Below are positions 1-62,684 of a stretch of DNA of 64,000 bases, in pieces. The notes under the pieces were generated by a model that saw nothing but the letters and a program-made list of their open reading frames with translations, did no database searches and was not told the DNA's origin. How positions within the stretch are numbered: position 1 is the first letter of the stretch; every line of letters starts with the position of its first letter. The stretch is from Elusimicrobiota bacterium (GTDB lineage Bacteria; Elusimicrobiota; Elusimicrobia; UBA1565), in assembly GCA_016212885.1 (NCBI GenBank), contig JACRDO010000095.1:1-64000 (forward strand). The letters are read 5' to 3'. Made by a program: the position numbers and the translations under genes.

Positions 1-8
1 AGCCCAAG

Positions 9-85
9 AGCTATGAGCCATGAGCCGTGAGCTTGTCGTCAACGTTCCTCATGAGGTCGTGGCTCATGGCTCACCGCTCAGAGCT
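9..85. repeat. Imperfect inverted repeat (agctatgagccatgagccgtgagct ... ggctcatggctcaccgctcagagct)
   Basis: Both arms share GGCTCATGGCTCA in opposite orientation; lies upstream of the first CDS. Confidence 0.55.
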
Positions 86-6449: not shown

Positions 6450-7288
6450 TGGCTGAGAAGACCAGCTACGTCAAAGAAGCCTTCAAGCGCCAGGAAAACC
6501 TGATCGCCCTGGCCGGCTTCGCCGCCGCCGGCGCCTTGTTCAACCCCGGCTTCCTGTTCCTTGGAGGGGCCATCGAGGTCGTCTACCTCTGGATGGTCGC
6601 GGGCAATCCGAGGTTCAAGCGCGTCGTGGACTCGGAGAAGAACCGAAGCAGCCTGCTCCTGGGCCAGAACGAGCGGGTGCGCATGCTCTCCACGCTGCCG
6701 GAAGCCGAGCGCGAGAGATACCTTGCCCTGGCGGACATCCGTCAGCGGGTCTACGACTCCTGGCAGTCGCGCGACTCCGTCACGCAGAGCCTGCTCCAGC
6801 CCAGCGTGGACAAGCTCGACTACCTCCTCGACACCTTCCTGCGCGCCCAGCTGACCCTCCAGCGCATGCGCGAGCATCTCTCAGGCAGCGACTTTGGGGA
6901 CCTCGAGAAGCAGGCCAAGATGCTCGAAACCGAGATCGCTCAGCGCCGCCTGCCGGACAAGCTCACGGAGGTGAAGTCCAAGAACCTGGAGATCCTCAAG
7001 CAGCGCATCGCGCGCCTCAAGAAACTGCAGGAGGACATCGCCGTGGTGCGCACCCAGCTCGACACGCTCGAGAACGCGATCCGCTTCGTCAACGACCAGA
7101 CGGTCTCCCTGAGCGACCCCCAGCAGATCACCAACGAGATCGACCGCGTCGCCTCGGAGGTGGGGGCGACCGAGAAATCCATCCAGGACGTCGAGTCGTT
7201 CCTGGGAACCCAGCAGGAGACCGACGAGAAGCGCATCGGCGAGATCCGCGCGGAGCAGCGCCAGGCGGAGGGGGAGCGCCCGGGATGA
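6450..7288 (+). CDS. Hypothetical membrane/coiled-coil protein
   Basis: Starts [48 protein letters not shown], then long heptad-rich region; adjacent to the ATPase stop, 4-bp overlap with the AAA gene. Confidence 0.75.
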
Positions 7289-9066
7289 ACCTGGAACAAT
7301 TCCCCAAGTGGGCCCAGGAGCTCGCGGACAAGTACGTGAGCGGGGCCTCGTCTTTGTTCGTGCTCTACGGCAACGTCGACGATTGGGTCCCCATGAAGGA
7401 CGTATCGAACCTTCCAAACAGCGTAGGTTCGATACGTCCAAACCTACAACGTTCGGAAGGTTTGGACGCGCGGAGCCTGCGCTACGTGTCCCTCCCGGAG
7501 TTCCTCAAGCAGGCCGTGTTCGGCACACGGGACGCGGTCATCCAGTACGACCAGGGCGGCGGCATCACGATCGGCTCGGAGGCGGCCCAGGACTTCTACC
7601 GGACCGTGGAGGCGATGGACACCGTCTCCGGCACGACCTTCTCAAAGCGCCTCCCGAAGAACCCGGCCGACGCGCTCCTCGTCATCGACCGGTTCATCCG
7701 CTCGAAGACCGCGGGCGAGGGCCGCAAGAAGGCCGGCATCGCGGTCATCATCTCCTTCGCGCACATGGTCGCCCCGCGCGGGGAGATATCCTTCATGAAC
7801 CAGGAGGACTGCCGCACCCTCATCACCCTGCAGAAGTGGGCCAGCGACCCGCTCTTCGCGCGCTCGGACGTGACCATCGTGCTGGCGACCGCAAGCCTGC
7901 AGGAGCTCAACGAGGCCTTAGTCAACAACCCCTTCACCTCCAAGATCCACGTCCCGCTCCCGGACGAAGAGGAGCGCGCCGAGTTCATCCGGGCCTCCCA
8001 GATCCCGGTCAAATACGAAGGCCTGACCCCGGAGACCTTCGCGCGGCAGACCAACGCCCTCTCCCGCGCGGACATCGAGGTGATGCTGAGGGGCGCCCAG
8101 CGGGCCGATAGGCTCGACCTGAATTTCGTGAGCGCCAAGAAGAAAGAGCTCATCGAGAAGTCCTGCTTCGGGCTGCTCGAGTTCCTGGAGCCCCGCTACA
8201 CCCTCGACGCGGTCGAGGGCCTCTGCGCGGCCAAGAGCCGCCTGCGCGAGGACATCCAGCTCATCAAGAAAGGCTGCTGGGACGCCCTGCCGATGGGCTA
8301 TCTGCTCTGCGGGCCGGTCGGCACCGGCAAGACATTTTTGAGCACCTGCGCCATCGGCGAGCTCGGCATCCCGTGCGTGCAGATGCTCAACTTCCGCTCG
8401 AAGTGGGTCGGCGCCACGGAGGGGAACCTCGAGAAGATCCTCATGACCCTGCGCGCCCTCGGGCCCGTGGGCGTGATCATCGACGAAGCCGACGCCTTCA
8501 TGGGCAGCCGGGAGCAGGAGGGGGACTCCGGCACCTCCGGCCGGATCTTCGCGCAGTTCGCGAGCCAAATGGGCGACACCAAGTACCGCGGCAAGATCCT
8601 CTGGTTCCTGCTCACCTGCCGGCCGGACCTCCTGCCCGTGGACATCAAGCGCCAGGGCCGCGTGGAGGTCCACATCCCGCTCTTCTACCCCCAGACCGCG
8701 GAGGAGAAGGTCCAGCTTTTCGTAGCCATGTCGAAAAAAGCCAAGTGGCCCGTAGAGCCGGCGGACGTGGATGTCCGATGGGTGGAAGGCAAGAAGCTCT
8801 CCGGAGCGGACATCGAAGCGGTCCTCGTCGGCGCCAAACGCAAGAGCCTTCTCGACGGCGAATCCAAGCCCGGGAAGGAGTACCTCCGCCAGGCCGCGGA
8901 AAGCTTCATCCCCGCGGCCAGCGCCGCGCAGGTTCAATACCAGGAGCTCGCGGCGGTCATCGAGTGCACGGACCTCTCGTTTTTGCCGGAGAACTACCGC
9001 AAGGCGGACCGGACGGAGATCCTGAAGGAATTCAACCGCCTGCGGGCCCTGCTGGAGGTGCGCTGA
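7285..9066 (+). CDS. AAA-family ATPase with probable degenerate N-terminal module
   Basis: Walker A CGPVGTGKTF, Walker B VGVIIDEADAF, FLLTCRPDLLP; first half lacks Walker A. Contains an in-frame Family A palindromic element (VSNLPNSVGSIRPNLQRSEGLDAR). Confidence 0.85.
   Translation: MNLEQFPKWAQELADKYVSGASSLFVLYGNVDDWVPMKDVSNLPNSVGSIRPNLQRSEGLDARSLRYVSLPEFLKQAVFGTRDAVIQYDQGGGITIGSEAAQDFYRTVEAMDTVSGTTFSKRLPKNPADALLVIDRFIRSKTAGEGRKKAGIAVIISFAHMVAPRGEISFMNQEDCRTLITLQKWASDPLFARSDVTIVLATASLQELNEALVNNPFTSKIHVPLPDEEERAEFIRASQIPVKYEGLTPETFARQTNALSRADIEVMLRGAQRADRLDLNFVSAKKKELIEKSCFGLLEFLEPRYTLDAVEGLCAAKSRLREDIQLIKKGCWDALPMGYLLCGPVGTGKTFLSTCAIGELGIPCVQMLNFRSKWVGATEGNLEKILMTLRALGPVGVIIDEADAFMGSREQEGDSGTSGRIFAQFASQMGDTKYRGKILWFLLTCRPDLLPVDIKRQGRVEVHIPLFYPQTAEEKVQLFVAMSKKAKWPVEPADVDVRWVEGKKLSGADIEAVLVGAKRKSLLDGESKPGKEYLRQAAESFIPAASAAQVQYQELAAVIECTDLSFLPENYRKADRTEILKEFNRLRALLEVR
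7401..7468. repeat. Palindromic element family A, copy A1 (two back-to-back hairpins) inside the AAA ATPase gene
   Basis: cgtatcgaac-cttccaaacagcgtag-gttcgatacg followed by cgtccaaacc-tacaacgttcggaa-ggtttggacg. Confidence 0.92.
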
Positions 9067-18806: not shown

Positions 18807-18884
18807 GGGGTCAGGTCTGGACAATAGACATTGTGAGCAATTAGGAATCGGTCATGTCAATGTCTATTGTCCAGACCTGACCCC
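18807..18884. repeat. Perfect 27-bp inverted repeat with 24-nt loop (MITE/REP-like)
   Basis: ggggtcaggtctggacaatagacattg / caatgtctattgtccagacctgacccc, exact reverse complements. Confidence 0.95.
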
Positions 18885-19677: not shown

Positions 19678-20480
19678 GGGTGGGAGCCGACCTCGGCGGC
19701 TCCTGGCTTCGCGCGGCGGTCTGCAAAGGCCGCGGCTTTCAAAGGGCGCGCAGGAGGATCGCGGCCGGCGAGGCGCCTGAGCGCGCGCTCGCGCAGGCCC
19801 TGCGGTCCCTCGGCCTGCGGCGCGTTCGCAGACTCGTCATCGGCGCAAGGGGCGCCTGGCTTGGGTCCGAGAAGGCGGCCCTGCGCCGCCGGCTCGCCGG
19901 CCTCGCCGACGAAATCCTCGTGATCTCGGACCTGGAGCTGGCCCACCTGGCGGCCTTCTCCGGAGGGCCGGGGGTGCTCGTCGCAGCCGGAACAGGCTCA
20001 GCGGCCTACGCGCGGGACATTCGCGGCAGGAGCGCCAGAGCCGGAGGCCTGGGCCCTCTGCTGGGGGACGAGGGGTCATCCTTCTGGATCGGCCGGCGCT
20101 GGCTCTGCGCGCTCCCCGACGAGGAGATCCGCCGCTTCGCCAAGCGGCCCGACGCGGTGCGGGCCGTGGCGGCGCTCGCGCGGGTGGTGCTCGCTCGCGC
20201 GGCCAATGACCGGCGCGCCCGGGCCATCGTTCGGGAGGCATGCCAAGGGCTGGCAACGCTGGCCTCGCGCGCCGCCTCGCAGCTGACCTTCAAGGGGCCC
20301 GCTCCCCTTTCGTGGTCCGGCGGACTCTTCCGCAGCGCGCTGTTCCGGGCCGAGTTCCTGCGGAGGCTGCCGCGGAGGAAGTTCTCTCCGCGGCCCATGG
20401 AGCGCAGGCCGGAAGATGCAGCAGCCATAAGCGGCGCACCAAACATCGGGAATGCGTATCGAACTTTCCAAACGACGTAG
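19674..20480 (+). CDS. BadF/BadG/BcrA/BcrD-type or N-acetylglucosamine kinase-like ATPase
   Basis: MRVGADLGGSWLRAAV, VAAGTGSAAYARD and GPLLGDEGSSFWIG ASKHA motifs; stop codon lies inside a Family A element. Confidence 0.75.
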   Translation: MRVGADLGGSWLRAAVCKGRGFQRARRRIAAGEAPERALAQALRSLGLRRVRRLVIGARGAWLGSEKAALRRRLAGLADEILVISDLELAHLAAFSGGPGVLVAAGTGSAAYARDIRGRSARAGGLGPLLGDEGSSFWIGRRWLCALPDEEIRRFAKRPDAVRAVAALARVVLARAANDRRARAIVREACQGLATLASRAASQLTFKGPAPLSWSGGLFRSALFRAEFLRRLPRRKFSPRPMERRPEDAAAISGAPNIGNAYRTFQTT

Positions 20481-20523
20481 GTTTGGTACGTCCTGAACCT
20501 AAGCCGTATGGTTGTTCAGGACG
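20438..20523. repeat. Palindromic element family A, copy A2, across the kinase 3' end
   Basis: cgtatcgaac...gtttggtacg and cgtcctgaac...gttcaggacg (perfect 10-bp stem). Confidence 0.88.
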
Positions 20524-20569
20524 GCAAGTTTGCTAGAATTCGATCCCGGGGGATAAGGCTTCCTTACAA

Positions 20570-36829: not shown

Positions 36830-36885
36830 CGTCCCGAACATCCGAACGGCGTATCGAACTTTCCAAACGACTTAGGTTCAATACG
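36830..36885. repeat. Palindromic element family A, copy A3, supplying the stop codon of the transglycosylase gene
   Basis: cgtcccgaacatccgaacgg-cgtatcgaactttccaaacgacttaggttcaatacg. Confidence 0.85.
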
Positions 36886-38581
36886 TCCGGCTGTCCCTTC
36901 TGGAGGGGGGCATATAGTCCGAGCAGTCGAGGGATTCGCCGCCTAGATCCGCGTAATACCCGAGGACCTTCCGCACGTAATTCTTGGTTTCAGGGAAGTT
37001 CGGGATCCGCGTCTTCACCCGCCCCTCCCCGGCGTTGTAGGCCGCGACGGCCAGGACCTTGTCGCCGTCGTAGAGTTCCAGCAGCCGCGTCAGGTGGCGA
37101 ACGCCTCCGTCGATGTTCTGCTCCGGGTTGCGGGGATTGACGCCCAGGCGGCGGGCGGTGCCTGGCATGAGCTGCATCAAGCCGACGGCGCCCGCGTCCG
37201 ACACCACCATGGGATTTCCCCAAGGATTCTCGGCCCGCATGACGGCTTCCACGAGCTTTGGGTCTAAGCCGCGCTTGCCCGCGATGATCTCGATGGTCTT
37301 CCGGTAGCGCGCCACGGGATCCTTAGTCGGGATGGAAGCCGCGGGGAGGGGGGTAATCGCCTGCTTGACCTGGTCCCGGACAGCTTTCAGAGTCGGGCTC
37401 TTCACCGGCCGTACGGCTTCCACCTTGGGCTTGGAAGGCCCCTGCCGGTAGGCCCGCTCGTAGGCGGCCAGGAGGTACTTGACCTCCGGATCGTTCGGGA
37501 TGCCTCCGCTGCGCACGACCTTCCCGGTGCCGACCTGATAGGCGGCCAGGGCGCGGTGCACGTCCCCGTGGAAAAAATCCAAGAGCTTGGACAGCAGCTT
37601 CGCTCCGACCCGGATGTTCGTCTCCGGGTTCTTGAGGTCCGCGGCCTTCATGCCCACGGCCTTCGCGGCGCCCGGGGTGATGAGCAGGAGCCCGTAGGAG
37701 CCCCCGCTCGCTCGGCCGGGCTTGGCTTCGAAGCCGCCTTTGGCGGCCACGAGGGCGCGCAGAACGTCCGGACTGATCCCCGCGGCCTTCGCCTCGCTTT
37801 GGATGACGGCTTCGTAAGGGCCCAAGGGGACCGCGTCCCGAACATCCGAACGCAGTAGTTCGGGACGTATTGAACCTACGGCGTGTGGAAGGTTCAATAC
37901 GTCCGGCAGGGGCACGTCCTTGCTGAGGTTGGCGCCCACGGTCTCGATGGCCCTGGGGAATCCCAGAGAACCCGCGGGCGATGCTTTCGCCGCAACGCGG
38001 GTCCAAGGCATGAGCGGCGTCCCGAACATCCGAACGGCGTTGGTTCGGGACGTCCCAAACCTACGCATTTCGGATGTTTGGGACGACGCGAGTGCATCGC
38101 GCACCGCGCTGTTGTCATAAAAGGCGGCAGGATCCTTCGCCCCCGCGGCCGCGCTCATGTCCAAAGTCTTCTTCGCGGCCGCGAGCTCCGCGCGCCGGGA
38201 AAGCTCCGGAGACTTCTCCTGCTGAGCCCGGGGCTCGAAGCCCTCCGGCCGCTCCTCGAAGCGGATGTTGTCCTTGCCCCAGACGGCCTTGAGGAGCTCG
38301 ATCGACTCCGCGGCCTCCTCCGCCTGCTGGAGCGTCCACGTGGAAGCGGTGAACCGCAGCTCCGCCATGCCGTTCTCCGTGTCCTCTACGAGGCTCTTGC
38401 CGGCGCCTAGGCCCACCAAGCCGAGGATCCGGGGCTCGGTGGCGTTCAGCTTCTCCTGCGCCTCGACACTCACGCCCTCAGGCATGCGCAGGACCACGCG
38501 GACATCGGCGCTCGCGGAGAAGGAGAGGAAGAGCAGTCCGAGGGAGGCTGCGGCGGAGATCCTGCAGGCTGGGCCCTTCAT
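36878..38581 (-). CDS. Lytic transglycosylase with two SLT domains
   Basis: ALVAAKGGFEAKPGRASGGSYGLLLITPGAAKAVG and VEAVMRAENPWGNPMVVSDAGAVGLMQLMPGTARRLGV. Two in-frame Family A insertions plus A3 at its end. Confidence 0.85.
   Translation of the reverse strand: MKGPACRISAAASLGLLFLSFSASADVRVVLRMPEGVSVEAQEKLNATEPRILGLVGLGAGKSLVEDTENGMAELRFTASTWTLQQAEEAAESIELLKAVWGKDNIRFEERPEGFEPRAQQEKSPELSRRAELAAAKKTLDMSAAAGAKDPAAFYDNSAVRDALASSQTSEMRRFGTSRTNAVRMFGTPLMPWTRVAAKASPAGSLGFPRAIETVGANLSKDVPLPDVLNLPHAVGSIRPELLRSDVRDAVPLGPYEAVIQSEAKAAGISPDVLRALVAAKGGFEAKPGRASGGSYGLLLITPGAAKAVGMKAADLKNPETNIRVGAKLLSKLLDFFHGDVHRALAAYQVGTGKVVRSGGIPNDPEVKYLLAAYERAYRQGPSKPKVEAVRPVKSPTLKAVRDQVKQAITPLPAASIPTKDPVARYRKTIEIIAGKRGLDPKLVEAVMRAENPWGNPMVVSDAGAVGLMQLMPGTARRLGVNPRNPEQNIDGGVRHLTRLLELYDGDKVLAVAAYNAGEGRVKTRIPNFPETKNYVRKVLGYYADLGGESLDCSDYMPPSRRDSRTY
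37834..37901. repeat. Palindromic element family A, copy A4, inside the transglycosylase gene
   Basis: cgtcccgaac...gttcgggacg, cgtattgaac...gttcaatacg; protein VLNLPHAVGSIRPELLRSDVRDA. Confidence 0.92.
38018..38085. repeat. Palindromic element family A, copy A5, inside the transglycosylase gene, different reading frame
   Basis: cgtcccgaac...gttcgggacg, cgtcccaaac...gtttgggacg; protein SSQTSEMRRFGTSRTNAVRMFGT. Confidence 0.92.
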
Positions 38582-43399: not shown

Positions 43400-45937
43400 C
43401 TAGCCGAGTTTCCCGAGGCGCCAGCGCAGGTACAGGTAGGCGATCCCGATCGGGATCAGCATGAAGGAGAGGTAGGTGAACGGCGTCAGCCCGGCCGCGG
43501 CCTTGAAGAGGTACTTCATCCCCACGAGGCCGAGGGTGGTGATGGCCAGAGAGGCCGAGCCCAAGAATCCCATCGCGTCCGCCATGTCTTCCTTGCGCGG
43601 GACCCGGGCCTGGAAGAAGCTCTGCAGCTTGAGCGTCGAGATGACCTGCGCGATCCCGAACGGGATCAGGGCAAGGGCGGGGAGAGTCAGGCTCGAGGCC
43701 CATGAGAGGAAGGCCGGGAGCGCCGCCATGGCGCCCAAGGTCGGCAGCGGCAGGGCCAGCGTGGCGAGCAGGGAGAGGCCCCCGGTCCCGAGGAGGAGCC
43801 AGCGCAGGAGCGACTTCCTGAGGATTTGCGCTTCCTGCGCATCGTCGATCTGCCCGGACTCCTTGCCCTTGGCGATCCGGTTGCCCTCCATCGTCATCAG
43901 CAGCCCGCCCAGCAGGCCGCCCGCGCTGTAGAGGCCGGTCAGCCAGCCGCTCACCGAGGTGGCCAGCTCCGAGTTGGCGGCGCCCACCAGCGCCAGCGCG
44001 TAGCCGGGCGCCATCATCTGATAAAGGAAAGGGTTGAGCATCATGACCAGGGAGTAGGCGATGAAGCTCAGGCGCAGGGCCGGAGCCCTCCAGACGAGCT
44101 TCGCGCCGCGGCCGATCTTTTGGAAGAAGCCCTTGAAGACGGCCCCTACGCCGCCCGGGCGGCTCTGCGGCCGCTCGCTCTTCAACTCGGATTTAGGAGG
44201 CAGGCGCAGGGTCTTCCATACGATCATCGCGGAAGCGAGAGCCGCGACCGGGAATGCGATCAGCGCGGGCATGAAGCCGAAGCTTGACACCACGATCCCG
44301 GTCACGATCGGCCCGGCGATCCCGATGATCTCGACGAGGGTGTGCTCGATGGACCAGAACCTCTCGAGCGCCGAGTTCTTCTGGCCCACCAAAAGCGGCG
44401 GGATGCTGTTGAGCGCCGTGATCGTCACCCCGAAAATCAGCGCGTTGACGGAGTAGAAGCCGATCATCAGAGGAAGGGTGATGTGCCCTGTGGCGAGCAG
44501 GCCGATGAGCGCCGAGATGGAAGCCAGCCTGAGGAGCATGGAGCCGAGGTACGTCTTCCTGATCCCGAACTTCTCGACTAGGACGGGCCCGATCTGCCGC
44601 CCGATGATGCCCGCGATGGAGGAGAACACCGCGAGCTGGGCCACGACGGTGAAATCGCCGAAGGCCTTCTGCACCAGGGTGGGCATCGCCGCGCCGAGGG
44701 CCTCGATGCCCACCTGGGCCACCAGCAGGGAGGAGATGAACCACCAGGCCACCTTGCCCAGAGCGGAGCGCTCCTTCTTCTCCTGCGCGGGCGCCGGGTC
44801 CGTCTTCGGAGCCTCTTGGATGTTGGCCGCGTTCGGGATGGCTGACGGGGGGAGGGAGAGCTGAGCCTCCGCGCCGACCGCCTCGGAAACCGGGGAGAGC
44901 TGAGCCTCCGCAGCTTCGACGCTCTCGAGCGCCAGCTGAGCCGGGGTCCCGGCGGCCTTGCCGGCTTGGACCTTGAAAGCCAAGCCCGCGTTCTCATCCG
45001 GAAGGCTGATGACGCGCCGGCCCAGGAACGGGATCTTCGAGAGCCAGCCTCCGGCCTTCACCGGAGCCTGGGAGGGGGAAGCTGTCTCGCCTTGCGCTTC
45101 TGCGCCGCTCAGCTCGCCCAGGGCGCGCGCGTCGGACCGGAGATCCTCGGAATCCTGCCGTCCGGAGAAGAGCCTCTTCAGCTCTTCGAAGCGCCGGCCC
45201 AGGGTGTTCGGTCGGCCGCGCAGCTGCTGAAGGGAAGAGGCGCCTTGCTCGACGACGGGGACCTCTCCGACATCCGTTGTGCGGACATCGCCCGACTGCG
45301 CGGCCGCAGGGACCCCGCGCGGACCGACCAAGGACGCGGCAGGCGCCGACACCGAAGCGTCCATGGCGCGTTCGCGCAAGACCGCGGGGGCCTGGAAAGG
45401 GACGGGCTGCATCCCGCCGCCGGAGGGCCGCAGAAGCGGGACCCGCTGGGGCGCTGCCCCAGGGGCGGCGATGACGGAGGCGGGCAGCACGAGCGACGCG
45501 GCGGAGGGCGAAGCGGTGACGGAGGGCTCCACGACCGGGGTCGGCACGGAGAGGGGGGAGACGAGCCCGTTCGAGATATTCCCCATGAAGCCCGGAAGGC
45601 TGGTCTGGATGCGGATGTTCTGCAGGCTGAGCGCTCCAACTCCAGCCGCGCCGAGGTTCAGGCCGCCGACCGGGGTGTTGACCTTGATCGGGGTCGGAGC
45701 GGTCTGCGCCGCGGCCTGGGTGGGGCCGATGCCTGGGGCCGTGAGGAGGAGCGCGAGCGCCAGAGCGAGGCAAAGCGCGCGCTTGGCCGTACCAAACATC
45801 CAAAATATGTAGGTTCGGTACGTCCCGTCCAAACCTTCCGAACGTCGTAGGTTTGGACGTATCGAACCTACGCAGTTTGGAAAGTTCGATACGAACCAAC
45901 GTCGTTTGGATGTTCGGGACGCCGTAAGGACCTTCAT
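43400..45937 (-). CDS. MFS transporter with long secreted-type Pro/Ala-rich N-terminal extension
   Basis: Signal-peptide-like MFGTAKRALCLALALALLLTAPGIGPTQAAAQ, about 300 aa low-complexity extension, then multi-TM MFS domain. True start may be MFGT, inside a Family A element. Confidence 0.75.
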   Translation of the reverse strand: MKVLTASRTSKRRWFVSNFPNCVGSIRPNLRRSEGLDGTYRTYIFWMFGTAKRALCLALALALLLTAPGIGPTQAAAQTAPTPIKVNTPVGGLNLGAAGVGALSLQNIRIQTSLPGFMGNISNGLVSPLSVPTPVVEPSVTASPSAASLVLPASVIAAPGAAPQRVPLLRPSGGGMQPVPFQAPAVLRERAMDASVSAPAASLVGPRGVPAAAQSGDVRTTDVGEVPVVEQGASSLQQLRGRPNTLGRRFEELKRLFSGRQDSEDLRSDARALGELSGAEAQGETASPSQAPVKAGGWLSKIPFLGRRVISLPDENAGLAFKVQAGKAAGTPAQLALESVEAAEAQLSPVSEAVGAEAQLSLPPSAIPNAANIQEAPKTDPAPAQEKKERSALGKVAWWFISSLLVAQVGIEALGAAMPTLVQKAFGDFTVVAQLAVFSSIAGIIGRQIGPVLVEKFGIRKTYLGSMLLRLASISALIGLLATGHITLPLMIGFYSVNALIFGVTITALNSIPPLLVGQKNSALERFWSIEHTLVEIIGIAGPIVTGIVVSSFGFMPALIAFPVAALASAMIVWKTLRLPPKSELKSERPQSRPGGVGAVFKGFFQKIGRGAKLVWRAPALRLSFIAYSLVMMLNPFLYQMMAPGYALALVGAANSELATSVSGWLTGLYSAGGLLGGLLMTMEGNRIAKGKESGQIDDAQEAQILRKSLLRWLLLGTGGLSLLATLALPLPTLGAMAALPAFLSWASSLTLPALALIPFGIAQVISTLKLQSFFQARVPRKEDMADAMGFLGSASLAITTLGLVGMKYLFKAAAGLTPFTYLSFMLIPIGIAYLYLRWRLGKLG
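45788..45922. repeat. Palindromic element family A, long copy A6 (several hairpin units)
   Basis: About 100 bp nearly identical to the reverse complement of copy A8 (60483-60619). Confidence 0.93.
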
Positions 45938-60482: not shown

Positions 60483-60619
60483 CGTCCCGAACATCCAAAC
60501 GACGTTGGTTCGTATCGAACTTTCCAAACTGCGTAGGTTCGATACGTCCAAACCTACGACGTTCGGAAGGTTTGGACGGAACGTCCCAAACCTACGAATC
60601 CCCGATGTTTGGAACGTCC
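60483..60619. repeat. Palindromic element family A, long copy A8, immediately upstream of plsY
   Basis: At least four hairpin units; reverse complement nearly identical to A6. Extra half unit ttcggaaagtttggacgac at about 60431-60450. Confidence 0.95.
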
Positions 60620-62111: not shown

Positions 62112-62611
62112 TGGAGCCGACGGCGCCCTCCTTGGGGCGGCCGCCCTCTTCGGGAAAGGAGAACGACAGCCCTACGAGGACGGCGCCCTCCTTGGGGCGG
62201 CCGCCCTCTTCGGGAAAGGAGAACGACAGCCCTACGAGGACGGCGCCCTCCTTGGGGCGGCCGCCTCTGCCTGATAAGGATTTCTTCAACATCGGCGAGG
62301 CCGGCCGGATCGCGCAGGTGCCTGAATACACCCTGCGCTACTGGGAGAGGCGCTTTGGCATGCTCCGCCCGGTGCGCCGCGAGAGCGGGCACCGCCGCTA
62401 CACCCGGCGGGACATCGAGACCATCCTCCGGATCAAGGAGCTCCTGCAGGGCCGGAAGATGACCGCGGCCGGCGCGCGCAAGCTGCTCCTTGCGCGGGCC
62501 GCGTCCGAGAGAAAGTCAGCGGGGCAGCCGCTCCGGCTGGACGCGCAGGCGCTGAAGCTCCTGCGCGACGTTCGGGAGGACCTCCGCGAGATTATCGCGG
62601 AGCTGCAATGA
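62111..62611 (+). CDS. MerR-family transcriptional regulator with Family C repeat-encoded N terminus
   Basis: FNIGEAGRIAQVPEYTLRYWERRFGMLRPVRRESGHRRYTRRDIETILRIKELL; N-terminal TAPSLGRPPSSGKENDSPTR repeats. Confidence 0.9.
   Translation: MEPTAPSLGRPPSSGKENDSPTRTAPSLGRPPSSGKENDSPTRTAPSLGRPPLPDKDFFNIGEAGRIAQVPEYTLRYWERRFGMLRPVRRESGHRRYTRRDIETILRIKELLQGRKMTAAGARKLLLARAASERKSAGQPLRLDAQALKLLRDVREDLREIIAELQ
62119..62265. repeat. Palindromic element family C, 60-bp in-frame tandem (2 full plus partial copies)
   Basis: gacggcgccctccttggggcggccgccctcttcgggaaaggagaacgacagccctacgag repeated at 62119, 62179 and 62239 (partial). Confidence 0.97.
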
Positions 62612-62671
62612 GCCTCCCACACGGCGTAGGTTCATTGCGTCCCGAACTACGTCGTTTGGATGTTCGGGACG
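62605..62671. repeat. Palindromic element family A, copy A9, supplying the merR stop codon
   Basis: gcaatgagcc...ggttcattgc and cgtcccgaac...gttcgggacg hairpins. Confidence 0.88.
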
Positions 62672-62684
62672 GGACGTGACTCAT

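What the first reader, a model, noticed from the sequence alone, without database searches (positions are those of the whole stretch)
7390..7480. In-frame Family A insertion in the AAA ATPase
The peptide VSNLPNSVGSIRPNLQRSEGLDAR sits between YGNVDDWVPMKD and SLRYVSLPEFLKQAV. It is fully encoded by two hairpins, so a functional-looking ATPase appears to carry a palindromic DNA element as an extra loop.
Basis: partly seen in the sequence, partly recalled or inferred. Interest (0 to 1): 0.75.

Follow-up and report, generated by a model that had tools for sequence, protein, structure and literature searches.

The report
Jumping hairpin inside an ATPase gene
A 66-base, hairpin-shaped mobile DNA element, one of more than a hundred in this uncultured Elusimicrobia genome, has landed inside a working ATPase gene without breaking its reading frame and adds 22 amino acids, and the same has happened in other genes including a single-copy flavin-synthesis gene; similar events are known from Rickettsia and REP repeats, but this family and its insertion rule are new.

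Summary
Window 7401-7468 is a 68-bp CG...CG double hairpin. It adds exactly 66 bp (22 codons, V40-D61) to an AAA-ATPase gene. Six orthologues (three Elusimicrobia, three Planctomycetota) lack it. The element belongs to a family of more than 120 sites in this genome. It also occurs in the one other genome of the genus tested, but not in 18 nearer relatives, the sampled phylum, phages or plasmids. Copies keep a fixed length (68 bp in 97 of 105) and show compensatory stem changes. They insert at a CG dinucleotide, preferably GACG. In 25 cases a copy sits inside another copy, and removing exactly 66 bp restores the host element. The same in-frame 22-residue insertion is shown against orthologues in single-copy RibF and an M2-like peptidase, and in frame (22 plus one residue) in a PBP1C-like transglycosylase; several further cases lie inside Pfam domains. 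This is a mobile, non-autonomous palindromic element of the RPE/intragenic-REP kind, most likely moved as a folded single strand by a trans-acting enzyme. That enzyme was not found. In-frame palindromic insertions are already known, so this is a new variant of a known kind. Its clean empty sites, fixed size and target rule make the mechanism testable.

The parts
7285..9066 (+). AAA-ATPase gene (593 aa) that carries the insertion; AAA domain residues 339-465
   Evidence: ORF; Pfam PF00004; orthologues
7401..7468 (+). 68-bp double-hairpin element, CG...CG (net insertion 66 bp, 7403-7468)
   Evidence: empty site in orthologues
7401..7436 (+). hairpin 1 (stem CGTATCGAACCT / AGGTTCGATACG)
7435..7468 (+). 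hairpin 2 (stem CGTCCAAACCT / AGGTTTGGACG), an inverted variant of hairpin 1 that shares the central CG
7399..7402 (+). target GACG at the 5' junction; GACG recurs as the element's 3' end at 7465-7468
   Evidence: family-wide 5' preference GA-CG, 35 of 95 against 5.7 expected
7402..7467 (+). the 22 inserted codons V40-D61, VSNLPNSVGSIRPNLQRSEGLD
37834..37901 (-). second copy, in frame in an SLT-type lytic transglycosylase gene (36878-38581, -)
38018..38085 (+). type-B copy, also in frame in the same SLT gene (second insertion in one gene)
45788..45921 (.). nested copy: type A (45826-45893) inside a type-B element, 134 bp in all
60483..60616 (.). nested copy: type A (60511-60578) inside a type-B element, 134 bp in all
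20452..20526 (+). further copy
62601..62674 (+). further copy, intergenic before a tRNA-like region
36847..36909 (+). partial or recombinant copy at the end of the SLT gene

Best explanation
The segment is a recent, in-frame insertion of a non-autonomous mobile palindromic element into an AAA-ATPase gene. SHOWN: the element is 68 bp from CG to CG and made of two abutting, mutually inverted hairpins. Insertion occurs at a CG dinucleotide, preferably GACG, and adds exactly 66 bp. Because 66 is 22 codons and four of the six frames usually lack stops, insertion into a gene often lengthens the protein instead of breaking it. Hairpin pairing is conserved by compensatory changes. Copies insert into each other. 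INFERRED: the element moves as a folded single strand, cut and joined by a trans-acting HUH (Y1-type) or similar enzyme that reads the hairpins and a GACG-like site at both ends, and copies in genes persist only where the extra loop is tolerated. The HUH step on its own has a probability of about 0.45.
For: Empty sites in six AAA orthologues, exactly 22 aa/66 bp in the three Elusimicrobia ones. 22-residue insertions shown against orthologues in RibF (7 orthologues; single copy in this genome) and an M2-like peptidase, and an in-frame one in a PBP1C-like transglycosylase (69 nt, one codon more than 66 bp). Insertions inside Pfam domains: flavokinase, M2, Pkinase, PD-(D/E)XK, receiver, transglycosylase. 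Length 68 in 97 of 105 isolated copies. 25 nested insertions restored by removing 66 bp; runs are almost all even-numbered in a ++-- pattern, 134 or 200 bp long. 114 both-sided compensatory cells in stems against 0-6 per slid control. One-sided target preference: GA before CG 35 observed against 5.7 expected, nothing on the 3' side. Restricted to the genus.
Against: No transposase flanked by the element was found: the three Y1 transposase loci of this genome carry no copy within about 1.5 kb, two show a different type of end, and Y1 genes are common in relatives that lack the element. No excision, strain polymorphism or expression data exist. Only about 12% of this genome and 31% of G001 were read in full, so a source element could be missed.
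Confidence: 0.85

Rival explanations
1. A tiny MITE moved by a DDE transposase, with a 2-bp CG target-site duplication and the inverted hairpin pair acting as terminal inverted repeats.
For: The two hairpins are inverted variants of one unit, loops are mutually complementary (78% WC in type A), and CG flanks every insertion.
Against: The target preference is one-sided, whereas DDE targets are usually symmetrical. Each hairpin keeps its own stem by compensatory change while the outer arms differ from each other. 66 bp is very short for a two-ended DDE synapse.
Confidence: 0.2
2. Cassette-like site-specific recombination across a 2-bp CG core, of the kind known for IS607-type serine recombinases or IS110-type elements.
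For: Every copy starts and ends with CG and targets CG; the 5' flank resembles the element's right end.
Against: A 66-bp double-stranded circle is physically unfavourable, and compensatory stem changes are not expected of a double-stranded core site. No recombinase linked to copies was seen, although this was not searched systematically.
Confidence: 0.15
3. The 22 residues are a selected functional loop of the ATPase, kept for a protein-level reason.
For: The frame is intact and the gene is under purifying selection.
Against: Copies in other proteins are read in other frames (RIEPSTRRRFDTSRTTPFGCSGR in RibF, TYQTSGMRRFGTSRTNAVWMFGT in the PBP). Length and hairpin pairing are just as conserved in copies outside genes. 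Orthologues do without the loop.
Confidence: 0.05
4. The gene is a pseudogene or the insert is an assembly artefact at a repeat.
For: The source is a fragmented assembly with contigs that end near copies.
Against: Unique flanks align to orthologues on both sides, the frame is open for 593 aa, the empty-site difference is exactly 66 bp, and distances to outgroups are the same as for the element-free orthologue. The same pattern recurs in independent genes.
Confidence: 0.03

Closest known systems
Rickettsia palindromic elements (RPE; Ogata et al. 2000, cited in PMC3767692; reviewed in PMC10969869)
   Same: Palindromic repeats spread through a genome and inserted in frame in unrelated genes without breaking them; lineage-restricted.
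   Different: RPEs are about 100-150 bp, in Alphaproteobacteria. Here the size is fixed at 66 bp, the element is two abutting hairpins, the target is (GA)CG, and empty sites and nested insertions are clear. The Rickettsia japonica paper reports that each orthologue carries an insert at the same locus.
CGTC- and GTAG-tagged REPs, intragenic REPs (Di Nocera et al. 2013, PMC3733652)
   Same: Small stem-loops, often as inverted dimers encoding 20-30 aa when intragenic, mostly intergenic; CGTC REPs also lack an associated transposase.
   Different: CGTC-REP stems are 8-9 bp with 4-5 nt loops and an unpaired tag. Here loops are about 12-16 nt, the CG(TC) is paired within the stem, and there is no terminal GTAG. 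Elusimicrobia is not mentioned in that paper's text.
REP/BIME with RAYT (TnpA-REP) and IS200/IS605 ends (PMC8266576)
   Same: Hairpin recognition as single strand and asymmetric short target are what is inferred here.
   Different: TnpA-REP cuts at CT (or CA) next to a GTAG-tagged REP. Here the boundary is CG and no linked tyrosine transposase was found.

Membership tests
Rickettsia palindromic element (RPE) | palindromic repeat inserted in frame in unrelated protein genes | tested here: met
Rickettsia palindromic element (RPE) | length about 100-150 bp | tested here: not met
   68 bp in 97 of 105 isolated copies
Rickettsia palindromic element (RPE) | sequence similarity to the described RPE families | not tested
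   no RPE models at hand; no Rfam match at the site
CGTC-tagged REP | unpaired terminal CGTC tag | tested here: not met
   CG-T-C bases are paired in the stem in nearly all copies
CGTC-tagged REP | stem 8-9 bp, loop 4-5 nt | tested here: not met
   stems about 10-12 bp, loops about 12-16 nt
GTAG-REP mobilised by RAYT | GTAG at the foot of the hairpin | tested here: not met
   GTAG-like bases occur only at the loop side; the foot is CG
GTAG-REP mobilised by RAYT | linked Y1 (PF01797) transposase flanked by the repeat | tested here: not met
   three PF01797 loci in the genome, none with a copy within about 1.5 kb; two carry GGGGTCAG-type ends
IS200/IS605-type single-strand element | insertion 3' of a short target without symmetrical duplication, with hairpins at both ends | tested here: inconclusive
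   one-sided GACG preference and two hairpins fit, but a 2-bp CG duplication gives the same sequence
DDE MITE | terminal inverted repeats plus fixed target-site duplication | tested here: inconclusive
   imperfect inverted ends and flanking CG on both sides

The most novel reading that the evidence does not exclude
A previously undescribed class of minimal transposable element: a 66-nt single-strand double hairpin that transposes by a GACG/CG end-joining rule, whose fixed size of exactly 22 codons makes it compatible with genes, so that a bacterial lineage is continually adding 22-residue loops to conserved enzymes, single-copy ones included.
Probability: 0.3. Interest if true: 0.78.

Novelty: new variant of a known kind. 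Interest (0 to 1): 0.57.

Why it matters
In-frame palindromic insertions have been known in Rickettsia since 2000, but the mobilising enzyme and the insertion rule remained unclear, and the 2024 MITE review (PMC10969869) only calls it conceivable that the same route of protein change exists in other prokaryotes. Here, in another phylum, the insert size (66 bp), the target ((GA)CG), empty sites in several conserved proteins and self-nesting are all readable from sequence. This gives a defined substrate and product for finding the enzyme, and natural before/after pairs (AAA, RibF, M2 peptidase) to measure what an unselected 22-residue loop does to a protein.

Tried and rejected
Ancestral loop lost in relatives: rejected, since six orthologues lack it and the sequence is a repeat. 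Known RNA family: no Rfam hit at E up to 1 in 7200-7700. Phage or plasmid origin: no match in phages, plasmids or viral contigs. REP/RAYT linkage: the Y1 loci of this genome lack the element and two carry a different end type. A longer source element with the hairpins as ends: a unit scan of the fetched sequence found almost no solitary hairpins, and the one unfetched place of the listed pattern matches that I checked (C149:12284) was a solitary hairpin without a partner in the 6.1 kb read. Codon-usage gene calling to count intragenic copies was noisy, so only cases backed by Pfam or orthologues are claimed. That 4 of 6 frames are open was considered as a sign of selection for coding; by a rough estimate it is not unusual for 22 codons and is not used as evidence.

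Full report
OBSERVATION. The ORF at window 7285-9066 encodes a 593-aa AAA ATPase (PF00004, E 7.6e-23, residues 339-465). At 7398-7468 it reads through two adjacent hairpins. The stretch folds much better than 200 dinucleotide shuffles, none of which folds as well (z -5.4 as DNA, -6.3 as RNA). The gene follows an ABC permease gene, an ABC ATPase gene and a gene without a Pfam match.

EMPTY SITE. Orthologues were found in one genome of the same genus (G001, 82% identity), in two genomes of the same order (72%) and in three Planctomycetota genomes (50-51%). G001 and one of the order relatives are named Elusimicrobia bacterium in the records, which places the window. The three Elusimicrobia orthologues lack exactly 22 residues/66 bp at this place; the Planctomycetota orthologues have one more residue of their own. 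The pre-insertion gene reads PMKD-ARSLR against PLRE-PKSLR. The inserted residues are VSNLPNSVGSIRPNLQRSEGLD (V40-D61). The gene still looks constrained: own-G001 dN/dS is 0.20, and identities to outgroups (0.72-0.73) equal those of the element-free orthologue (0.72).

FAMILY. A search of the whole genome found the element at dozens of places, and a covariance model listed 151 matches, both-strand matches included. A profile search of the 468 kb fetched around these places gave 122 sites. A 22-nt core pattern gives 170 matches in the 3.8-Mb genome against 4 for the reversed control. G001 has the family too; the other 18 genomes of the family and order do not. In a sample of 149 genomes of the phylum only the window's own genome matched. 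Nothing was found in phages, plasmids or viral contigs, and Rfam has no match at the site.

ANATOMY. Each copy runs from CG to CG and holds two hairpins that share a central CG. The second hairpin is an inverted variant of the first. Two layouts exist, 36+34 and 35+35, and both total 68 bp; 97 of 105 isolated copies are exactly 68 bp. Stem sequences vary between copies (GTATCGAAC, GTATTGAAC, GTACTGAAC, GTCCCGAAC, GTACCAAAC, GTCCAAAC) but the opposite arm changes with them: 114 both-sided Watson-Crick changes over the four stems, against 0-6 per control with partners slid by one or two positions. Related copies inherit changes, so these cells are not independent events, but the contrast with the slid controls is very large.

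INSERTION RULE. In 25 cases a copy lies inside another copy, and deleting 66 bp between the CGs restores a full host element (68 bp in 24, 67 bp in one). Runs of hairpin units are almost always even in number, nested as + + - -, with total lengths of 134 or 200 bp (68+66, 68+66+66). The target is always CG; the preceding two bases are GA in 35 of 95 primary sites against 5.7 expected from CG sites in the same DNA, while the 3' side shows no preference. The element itself ends in GACG. At the AAA site the target was GGACG. Whether one calls this a 2-bp CG duplication or insertion 3' of GACG cannot be told from sequence alone.

OTHER GENES. The AAA gene is not an exception. RibF, the bifunctional riboflavin kinase/FAD synthetase, is present once in this genome and carries 22 extra residues right after the NVGTRPT motif of its flavokinase domain; seven orthologues lack them. 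An M2-like metallopeptidase carries 22 extra residues against G001. A PBP1C-like protein has an insert in its transglycosylase domain, absent from G001 (69 nt, one codon more than the element). An SLT-type lytic transglycosylase in this window (36878-38581, -) carries two copies. Pfam domains are also crossed in a receiver domain, a protein kinase and a PD-(D/E)XK nuclease, the last with a nested composite. Different proteins read the element in different frames and on either strand, so no particular peptide is selected. Many copies appear intergenic or at gene edges (noisy), as expected if most insertions in genes are removed by selection.

MECHANISM. Shown: mobility in the past (nested copies, empty sites), fixed insert size, CG target, conserved pairing. 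Inferred: the moving form is a folded single strand. Reasons: conserved pairing of each hairpin separately, one-sided target preference, the same GACG at the left target and the right end, and a length too short for a comfortable double-stranded circle. These are the properties of IS200/IS605-type and REP/TnpA-REP systems (PMC8266576), but no linked Y1 transposase exists in the sequence read: the three Y1 genes lack the element nearby and two have a different end type, and Y1 genes are as common in relatives without the element. The enzyme may be missing from this 92% complete assembly, act from elsewhere in the genome, or be of another class.

COMPARISON. Rickettsia palindromic elements are the closest in behaviour: palindromes in frame inside unrelated genes (PMC10969869, PMC3767692). 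Di Nocera et al. (PMC3733652) describe CGTC- and GTAG-tagged REPs, many intragenic as inverted dimers of 20-30 aa, and state that CGTC REPs have no dedicated transposase. The present family resembles these in behaviour, but fails the CGTC-REP definition (paired CG, long loops), the GTAG definition, and the RPE size range. It is therefore best described as a new family that works like RPEs/intragenic REPs, not as a member of one of them.

VERDICT. The kind of event is known, so interest is moderate; the exact 66-bp unit, target rule, self-nesting and conserved-gene empty sites in a phylum for which I found no earlier report make it more informative than the Rickettsia cases. The literature search covered only the open-access library, so absence of earlier reports is not certain.

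Noticed in passing
window 18807-18884; L054 and L055 around the Y1 genes: A perfect 27-bp inverted repeat GGGGTCAGGTCTGGACAATAGACATTG matches the ends of a Y1 transposase element elsewhere in the genome (L055: TAGGGTCAGGTCTGGACAGTAGACATT...); it fits the GGGGWSAS ends of TIR-associated tyrosine transposases described in PMC3733652.
   Followed up: partly
L100 (G000:C115) near 2015-2088; also L083, L084, L085, L086: A type-B copy lies in a larger insertion of roughly 300 bp with its own long inverted ends (TAGTGCTCCGACCGACCCATAGCCG ... CGGCTATGGGCCGGTCGGAGCACTA), absent from G001; near-identical copies sit at the ends of several contigs. It looks like a second, larger mobile element that carries a hairpin element as passenger.
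   Followed up: no
L138, L164, L166, L183 (G001) and L082 (own): Several type-B copies are followed by nearly the same sequence, AAAGGAGAACGG or AGAGGAGAACGG, resembling a ribosome-binding region; they may sit in a recurrent leader or belong to a larger repeat.
   Followed up: no
window 36878-38581 (-): One lytic-transglycosylase gene carries two independent in-frame copies (37834-37901 and 38018-38085) and a partial copy at its 3' end.
   Followed up: partly
window 8-79: Long imperfect inverted repeat with GAGCCATGAGC-type motifs at the start of the window, unrelated to this family.
   Followed up: no
window 7285-9066: The N-terminal region of this AAA ATPase (about residues 1-300) has no Pfam or solved-structure match and was found only in a few Elusimicrobia and Planctomycetota genomes; function unknown.
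   Followed up: no
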